From the NCBI GenBank assembly GCA_964019415.1, contig OZ025884.1:4161193-4225192 (forward strand): a DNA stretch of 64,000 nucleotides. The letters are read 5' to 3'. A program made the position numbers and the translations under genes. The stretch comes from Ianthella basta (lineage: Eukaryota; Porifera; Demospongiae; Verongiida; Ianthellidae). The first letter of the stretch is position 1; the number at the start of each line of letters is the position of its first letter. This document shows, piece by piece, positions 44,089 through 44,124 of this stretch. The notes beneath the pieces were generated by a model, which saw only the letters and a list, made by a program, of their open reading frames with translations, had not been told where the DNA came from and did not search any database.

Positions 44089-44124
44089 GCAGCTGACGAA
44101 GGCCTTCGGGCTGAAACGTCCTGC
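44089..44124 (+). ncRNA. Hammerhead ribozyme motif with intact core
   Basis: GCAG (stem I) CTGACGA (consensus CUGANGA) AGGCC-TTC-GGGCT (stem II, one G-G mismatch) GAAA C-GTC CTGC (stem I). Predicted cleavage after C44120. Stem III is only the self-complementary ACGT, so folding probably needs a dimer. Confidence 0.75.

What the first reader, a model, noticed from the sequence alone, without database searches (positions are those of the whole stretch)
44089..44124. Hammerhead ribozyme with intact catalytic core in a mobile terminal repeat
Seen: GCAG-CTGACGA-stem II-GAAAC-GTC-CTGC in 36 nt, with stem I perfectly complementary and a cleavage-site GTC. Three more 36-nt motifs of the same layout occur at 20982-21017, 25694-25729 and 44030-44065. 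Known: Penelope-like elements carry minimal hammerheads in their terminal repeats. Inference: stem III is only ACGT, so two transcripts, or tandem repeats, would have to dimerise to cleave.
Basis: partly seen in the sequence, partly recalled or inferred. Interest (0 to 1): 0.85.

Follow-up and report, generated by a model that had tools for sequence, protein, structure and literature searches.

The report
Penelope ribozyme in a palindromic insertion
The motif is a real hammerhead self-cutting RNA of the known kind carried by Penelope-type jumping genes; here it sits in a short palindromic insertion, and its sister copies record how such elements are pasted into DNA from both cut strands, mostly without sign that the ribozyme had cut the RNA.

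Summary
Observation confirmed. 44089-44124 is a minimal type I hammerhead (HHR) with an intact core; the other three motifs are minus-strand relatives with broken cores. It belongs to Penelope-like elements (PLEs): 234 genomic matches to a strict PLE-HHR pattern (reversed-pattern control 0), a related copy about 170 nt behind an RT + GIY-YIG ORF, and covarying stems. HHRs in PLE terminal repeats, acting as dimers, are already in print.

The motif lies in a 233-bp head-to-head insertion (43978-44210) with an 11-14 bp target duplication inside a LINE remnant. Mapping 180 unique sister arms shows: (1) cDNA 5' ends pile up at the inferred transcription start (71 of 180), not at the ribozyme cut (2 of 180); (2) in 50 of 51 two-armed insertions exactly one arm carries the 34-nt 'tail', the other is ambiguous; two further families, sampled with bias, agree; (3) partner arms share rare variants, so they have one source.

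Best reading: both target strands prime reverse transcription on the mostly uncut 5' leader of PLE RNA, one from each of two start sites, and the cDNAs are joined. The ribozyme here is probably silent, because read-through RNA folds into a long hairpin. Cleavage itself was not testable.

The parts
43967..43980 (.). left target-site duplication TTCTAGTGCCT(TGT); the last TGT is also the start of the left arm
   Evidence: direct repeat with 44212-44225
43978..44074 (-). left arm: inverted cDNA copy of the PLE leader, +2 to +98, no tail
44030..44065 (-). decayed hammerhead of the left arm (CTGATTA, G8 lost)
44077..44210 (+). right arm: cDNA copy of the PLE leader, -2 to +132, with the 34-nt tail
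44079..44079 (+). inferred transcription start (+1), A of TCAGT; in longer copies a TATATAAA box begins 31 nt upstream
   Evidence: no RNA data
44089..44124 (+). minimal type I hammerhead with intact core; predicted cut 44120|44121 (+42|+43)
44176..44176 (+). inferred proximal reverse-transcription start (+98), where no-tail arms end
44177..44210 (+). 34-nt tail between the two inferred RT start sites; holds the ORF start ATG (44192-44194)
   Evidence: PLE tail as described in PMC3846280 and PMC11167929
44212..44225 (.). right target-site duplication TTCTAGTGCCTTGT
43797..44290 (+). interrupted host of the insertion: non-LTR retrotransposon RT remnant (LFVDDTTLYVSGH...SSAL before, SSALSAVDKWLSEM after), same reading phase on both copies of the duplication
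   Evidence: the RT motif is recognised from memory, no profile was run on it
20897..21054 (-). leader of another PLE family (D): TATATAAG, TCACT initiator 30 nt downstream, decayed HHR 20982-21017, ORF start ATGAGCCTCTAC
25608..25737 (-). leader of a third PLE family (C), tail-type end, decayed HHR 25694-25729, ORF start ATGAGCCTCTAC

Best explanation
A Penelope-like family, non-autonomous in the copies read (unit about 542 bp: promoter, transcription start, hammerhead, two reverse-transcription start sites, a short ORF start), makes RNAs beginning at +1. PLE protein, supplied in trans, cuts both strands of the target some 5-15 nt apart. Each 3' end primes reverse transcription inside the RNA leader, one from +98 and the other from +132. 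Both cDNAs copy the leader back to the RNA 5' end or stop early, and are then joined, giving a palindromic insertion with one tailed and one plain arm between short target duplications. The hammerhead in that leader is a genuine PLE-type minimal ribozyme that would need a dimer to cut; the templates of the mapped insertions were mostly uncut. In this copy it is a fossil inside a hairpin. Shown: anatomy, junction statistics, arm asymmetry, common source of the arms, association of related HHRs with RT/GIY-YIG ORFs. Inferred: +1 as the RNA 5' end, strand-by-strand priming, supply in trans, lack of cutting.
For: 234 intact PLE-type HHRs, control 0. Family B: an ORF with RVT_1 and GIY-YIG with an intact HHR about 170 nt after its end. 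Stem covariation in 10 aligned HHRs: 98.7% of 76 cells paired, 4 of 8 pairs changed on both sides, 0 of 500 shuffles reach the covariation score. In one search the similarity between family leaders covers the HHR and stops at its end in all three comparisons (L031 -3..+45, window 25734-25691 +6..+49, window 21054-20982 -31..+46). 5' ends: 71 of 180 unique terminal arms at -2..+6 (P 2e-51 against a uniform spread of the 156 arms in range), about 31 nt below TATATAAA; in family D 27 of 55 arms end within -3..+3 of a TCACT initiator 30 nt below TATATAAG, while 20 of 55 run on to the upstream edge of the query. 3' ends: 101 plain, 78 tailed, 1 other. Pairs: 50 of 51 one tailed + one plain, 1 ambiguous, with 47 distinct 5'-junction combinations; family C 23 of 25 (2 unclassified), family D 13 of 15 (2 unclassified), no tail/tail or plain/plain. 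Longest shared flank word at least 7 nt in 39 of 51 pairs, 71 of 1020 re-paired controls. Partners share 26 rare variants against mean 7.5, maximum 14 in 500 re-pairings. The Anolis PLE enzyme PAc cuts and extends both strands, starts RT at two internal sites that bound the tail, and inserts without HHR activity (PMC11167929, section 3 read).
Against: No expression or biochemical data. A sharp junction could be a drop-off hot spot rather than the RNA end. The sample (163 of 341 anchor matches) favours well-kept copies. In families C and D the query was a tailed copy, only 40 candidates were scored and the pairs were not deduplicated. With another reference the family D leader match runs on past the HHR to about +124 at 73%, so the HHR is not the only conserved part there. 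In one search two measures are weaker: pairs with two-sided change are reached by 19 of 500 shuffles, and further pair types by 464 of 500. The hammerhead dimer fold scores -16.7 kcal/mol against -14.0 for each single strand and -36.9 for the best duplex, so the model does not favour it. PAc showed no start-site difference between strands in vitro, which does not predict strict asymmetry. A few arms start within 2 nt of the ribozyme cut (L014, L042, L112, L168, L169), so occasional cut templates are not excluded. No RT-bearing copy of family A was found among those read.
Confidence: 0.8

Rival explanations
1. Self-priming: one cDNA snaps back at its 3' end and copies itself, making the palindrome. 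Arkhipova and colleagues (2013) proposed self-priming, on an antisense template, for inverted PLE junctions.
For: Head-to-head palindromes with a small centre and arms of common source; proposed in PMC3846280 (discussion read).
Against: The copied arm should carry the same tail as the first; instead 50 of 51 pairs are one tailed, one plain, and both outer ends fall on the two start sites.
Confidence: 0.08
2. The palindrome is itself a replicating foldback or MITE-like unit copied as a whole, so that asymmetry and centre are inherited.
For: Several copies share a centre near -2/+2, and some loci are segmental duplicates.
Against: 47 distinct combinations of 5' junctions among 51 pairs, variable shared flank words, and arms with the same ends but no detected partner (unpaired unique arms 76).
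Confidence: 0.07
3. The hammerhead cuts the template RNA and so sets the 5' end of new copies, as proposed for ribozymes of other retrotransposons (PMC7761336, passages).
For: A few junctions at or near the cut: L014 at +43, L042 at +44, L112 at +42, L168 in family D and L169 in family C; 17 arms at +35..+41 against 6.4 expected; 5 of 13 unit-spanning copies start at +35..+43 (by eye).
Against: +42..+44 holds 2 of the 156 arms in range, 2.7 expected from a uniform spread (L014's arm was set aside because it runs on into the ORF). The +35..+41 cluster lies at the foot of stem II, where RT may stall, and partly reflects AAAC microhomology between arms (read). Only one of the 13 unit-spanning copies starts at +43.
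Confidence: 0.1

Closest known systems
Minimal type I hammerheads of Penelope-like elements (Cervera and de la Pena 2014; Lunse, Weinberg and Breaker 2017; neither text held, known here from passages and reference lists of the reviews PMC7761336 and PMC6155905)
   Same: No helix III loop, place in the pseudo-LTR, need for a dimer
   Different: Nothing essential; here the copy lies in a palindromic insertion, and most mapped junctions avoid the cut
Penelope elements of Adineta vaga (PMC3846280; passages and discussion read)
   Same: Inverted pLTRs head to head, a 31-bp tail on one of them, short target duplications, TATA plus initiator in the pLTR
   Different: Here many insertions are only the leader, the copies are numerous, and the one-tailed rule can be counted
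PAc, Poseidon of Anolis (PMC11167929; section 3 read)
   Same: Internal RT start at two sites bounding the tail, both strands cut and extended, HHR dispensable for insertion
   Different: PAc was studied in vitro and showed no strand difference in start site; in the genomic record here 50 of 51 two-armed insertions use each site once
Metazoan non-LTR retrozymes (PMC7229834; passages read)
   Same: Short non-autonomous unit with a type I HHR, found in tandem copies
   Different: Unit about 542 bp with PLE promoter, tail and ORF start; minimal HHR; no circular RNA evidence

Membership tests
PLE-type minimal hammerhead ribozyme | Conserved core CUGANGA / GAAA / UH (recalled) | tested here: met
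PLE-type minimal hammerhead ribozyme | Stems I and II kept by compensatory change | tested here: met
   on 10 sequences; 4 of the 10 came from a pattern that fixed the three inner stem I pairs, so support rests on stem II and the outer stem I pair; one of its five measures (further pair types) does not exceed shuffles
PLE-type minimal hammerhead ribozyme | Helix III absent or minimal, dimer needed | tested here: met
   ACGT without a loop; a nested two-strand HHR structure can be written at -16.7 kcal/mol but is not the minimum, -36.9
PLE-type minimal hammerhead ribozyme | Match to an Rfam hammerhead model | tested here: not met
   explained by inference as lack of helix III, and not a defining feature of the PLE variant
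PLE-type minimal hammerhead ribozyme | Self-cleavage | not testable with these tools
   needs a bench assay
Penelope-like element | RT with GIY-YIG endonuclease in one ORF | tested here: inconclusive
   met for related family B; copies of family A that were read carry only a short ORF start
Penelope-like element | pLTR with optional 30-40 bp tail and inverted partner | tested here: met
   34-nt tail
Penelope-like element | Target-site duplication | tested here: met
   39 of 51 pairs with a shared flank word of at least 7 nt, control 71 of 1020
Foldback or MITE DNA transposon | Symmetric terminal inverted repeats, fixed duplication length (recalled) | tested here: not met
   one tailed and one plain end in 50 of 51; longest shared flank words run from 3 to 15 nt
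Metazoan retrozyme | Tandem 150-450 bp repeats with canonical type I HHR and circular RNA | tested here: inconclusive
   unit about 542 bp in L014, L048, L049, L151; RNA not testable
LINE twin priming | Two cDNAs from different, non-overlapping parts of one RNA (recalled) | tested here: not met
   the two arms copy the same leader region

The most novel reading that the evidence does not exclude
PLE integration uses two RNA leaders per event. The hammerhead's self-complementary ACGU and intermolecular stem I pair two RNAs from the same locus, so the ribozyme fold serves mainly as a dimerisation element that places two templates on a protein dimer. One protomer starts reverse transcription at +98 on one cut strand, the other at +132 on the opposite strand, as an obligatory division of labour; cutting is secondary.
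Probability: 0.2. Interest if true: 0.85.

Novelty: new member of a known kind. Interest (0 to 1): 0.55.

Why it matters
What the hammerhead does in Penelope elements, and how these elements join DNA at both target ends, are open questions (PMC7761336 calls the role a mystery; PMC11167929 leaves the later steps open). Many short insertions in one genome act as a natural record. It says that the copied RNA often starts at the inferred promoter start and rarely at the ribozyme cut, and that a two-ended event uses each of two start sites once. The second is a quantitative rule that a biochemical system such as PAc can test directly. In searches of the held library (listings and abstract starts seen) I noticed no paper with such a count; most subscription papers are not held.

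Tried and rejected
Rfam microRNA hits at 44026-44126 were rejected: far below gathering scores and explained by the hairpin. A ribozyme-cut origin of copies looked promising from L014 (+43 exactly) but did not survive counting. The +36..+40 junction cluster first looked like cut ends; inspection showed AAAC microhomology in several pairs and the foot of stem II in others. Slower decay of the core within family A was tested and not found. Folding of the single leader plus 20 nt of host gave no hammerhead and no unusual stability (z -0.98). A second HHR pattern with another stem II constraint was badly spaced and gave 3 matches against 1 in the control. Primer microhomology at plain arms was weak: of 26 pairs with zero offset, 7 have TG and 3 have TGT next to the duplication in the other copy. 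The ORF flag failed because of an offset, so I read those rows by eye; of the 16 loci, L157, L158, L164 and L165 gave no row, and L154, L159, L163, L166 and L167 were not unit-spanning. An RT-bearing copy of family A was not found; only a few of the 46 places were read in full. The species was not identified.

Full report
1. The motif. The sequence at 44089-44124 is as reported: stem I GCAG/CTGC, core CTGACGA and GAAA, stem II AGGCC TTCG GGCT, then C GTC, with the predicted cut after C44120. A general core pattern matches once in 64 kb, 0.12 expected. Rfam models do not see it. The other three motifs are on the minus strand and have broken cores.

2. It is a Penelope-type hammerhead. The window lies in a 209-Mb genome, eukaryotic by its content (inference). 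A strict pattern for this HHR type matches 234 times, with none for the reversed pattern. A related family (B, locus L031) has an ORF with reverse transcriptase and GIY-YIG domains and an intact HHR about 170 nt behind the ORF end. From the lists, read by eye, four more GIY-YIG hits have an intact HHR 350-553 bases downstream on the same strand (C3:2736196, C3:2738119, C5:9831249, C6:6373137). Ten HHRs from several families keep 98.7% of 76 stem cells paired, with two-sided changes in 4 of 8 pairs; none of 500 shuffles reaches the covariation score or the share of paired cells, 19 of 500 reach the number of pairs with two-sided change, and 464 of 500 reach the number of further pair types; slid controls are far lower. 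In one search the similarity between family leaders covers the HHR and stops at its end in three of three comparisons, which points to constraint; with another reference the family D match runs on to about +124 at 73%. Within the young family A the core decays like its surroundings; of 120 arms that cover it, 68 keep the core. The core G8 and G12 both lie in CpG steps and are lost in 15% and 22% of arms.

3. The insertion. The motif lies in an inverted pair of 97-nt arms, 91% complementary, with 5 nt between, flanked by TTCTAGTGCCTTGT at 43967-43980 and 44212-44225. The flanks read in the same phase across the duplication as a non-LTR RT remnant (motif recalled). The right arm is 34 nt longer. 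A transcript across it folds at -151 kcal/mol, z -24, so the HHR should be paired with its own antisense, which is transcribed first. Longer copies (L009, L010, L014, L048) show what lies upstream of the arm: TATATAAA, then TCAGT with its A 31 nt further on. I call that A +1; the HHR is +11..+46 and the cut +42|+43. Downstream the leader runs into an ORF start (MSLFFYIIDRLEQAK...) that ends after 55-73 codons in the copies with an open start (L014 both strands, L151); the unit then returns to the promoter, period about 541-542 bp in L014, L048 and L049. Family A is therefore a non-autonomous PLE derivative in the copies read.

4. The junction record. An anchor at +71..+93 has 341 matches with up to 3 mismatches. 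I listed 163 of these, the exact and CpG-variant ones, and fetched the DNA around them. One search mapped 210 arms with up to 4 anchor mismatches, leaving out the window, L007, L019 and L020 as repeats of other loci. One search set 7 aside because they run on into the ORF and removed 23 as duplicates by flank, leaving 180: 101 end at the plain site (about +98), 78 at the tailed site (+126..+132), 1 other. Inner ends: 31 at -60 or further upstream, 7 at -59..-10, 4 at -9..-3, 71 at -2..+6, 14 at +7..+19, 13 at +20..+34, 17 at +35..+41, 2 at +42..+44, 4 at +45..+49, 17 at +50..+71. Against a uniform spread of the 156 arms between -100 and +71, the start window has 7.3 expected (P 2e-51), the cut window 2.7 expected against 2 found, and +35..+41 has 6.4 expected against 17 (P 2e-4). 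Alignment ends can move by a base or two, and shared bases between arms move several of the +36..+40 junctions. Thirteen unit-spanning copies (read by eye; L049 counted with L048) start at -87, -57, -30, 20, 26, 35, 35, 36, 40, 43, 57, 83 and 85: none at -2..+6, as expected for read-through templates, and one at +43.

5. The asymmetry. Of 60 head-to-head pairs, 6 were left out because one arm runs into the ORF and 3 were duplicates. Of the remaining 51, 50 have one tailed and one plain arm and 1 (L058) is ambiguous; tailed left 26, tailed right 24. Both arms had to hold the anchor. From, by eye, eight more loci with a distant or short partner (L010, L022, L034, L036, L045, L059, L063, L088) are also one tailed, one plain; in at least six others (L017, L033, L055, L067, L075 and the L117 group) the partner's outer end fits neither site, so they say nothing. 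With the arm frequencies seen, about half should be mixed if the choice were independent. In two other families, searched with the window copies at 25694 and 20982, 23 of 25 and 13 of 15 pairs are mixed, the other 4 unclassified, and none is tail/tail or plain/plain; those searches favour tailed arms, score only 40 candidates, and were not deduplicated (five C19 loci of family C look like duplicates, and one family D arm enters two pairs). In family D, 27 of 55 arms end within -3..+3 of a TCACT initiator that lies 30 nt below TATATAAG, and 20 of 55 run on to the upstream edge of the query; of 13 family D loci then read, five (L170, L171, L173, L174, L175) appear one-armed and are joined to host DNA at that start.

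6. Common source. Partners share 26 rare non-CpG variants; re-paired arms share 7.5 on average, at most 14 in 500 trials; discordant sites are 88 against a mean of 120.7 and a minimum of 104. The two cDNAs therefore come from one RNA copied twice or, more simply, from two RNAs of one locus.

7. Mechanism. PAc, a PLE enzyme studied in vitro, cuts and extends both strands, starts inside the leader at two sites that bound the tail, and its insertion is not affected by a dead hammerhead; its HHR cut only with protein present (PMC11167929, section 3 read). The genomic record fits this and adds two points: the commonest 5' end of the template is +1, and the two start sites are used once each per two-armed event. 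Self-priming, suggested in PMC3846280 (discussion read) for the inverted junctions, does not predict different outer ends. The role of the HHR stays open. Its dimer form would join two RNAs, which would suit an event that needs two templates; the energy model does not favour that form (-16.7 against -14.0 per single strand and -36.9 for the best duplex). That is my boldest reading and is not shown.

8. Known and new. HHRs in PLE pseudo-LTRs and dimer action are in print (reviews PMC7761336 and PMC6155905, passages read; the 2014 and 2017 originals are not held). A tail on one of two inverted pLTRs, and TATA plus initiator, are described in PMC3846280 (passages). I noticed no listed paper with a count of the kind in sections 4 and 5. 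I file the ribozyme as a new member of a known kind.

Noticed in passing
46321-48581 and 52445-56569: Large tandem arrays: a 30-bp unit of about 76 copies and a 10-bp unit (AAGATGAGGC) of about 414 copies.
   Followed up: no
13363-16489: Two long ORFs that look by eye like protease/RT and integrase parts of an LTR retrotransposon; no profile was run.
   Followed up: no
6317-6988 (-): Reverse transcriptase fragment, RVT_1 match at 2.9e-11.
   Followed up: partly
G000 C18:4962903/4965297, C10:2498720/2499990 and others: GIY-YIG hits often occur as diverging pairs one to a few kb apart, as if longer PLE copies also insert head to head.
   Followed up: no
L168 184-194 (family D) and L169 118 (family C): One arm in each of two other families begins within 2 nt of the predicted hammerhead cut, joined to an arm that starts elsewhere; too few to count.
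   Followed up: partly
44176 and 44210 (+98 and +132): Both start sites of family A end in YTACA; flanks of plain arms show an excess of TG next to the duplication, 7 of 26, hinting at short primer-template pairing.
   Followed up: partly
44097-44098 and 44112-44113: In family A the hammerhead positions G8 and G12 lie in CpG steps and are changed in 15% and 22% of arms, so CpG decay should silence these ribozymes quickly.
   Followed up: yes
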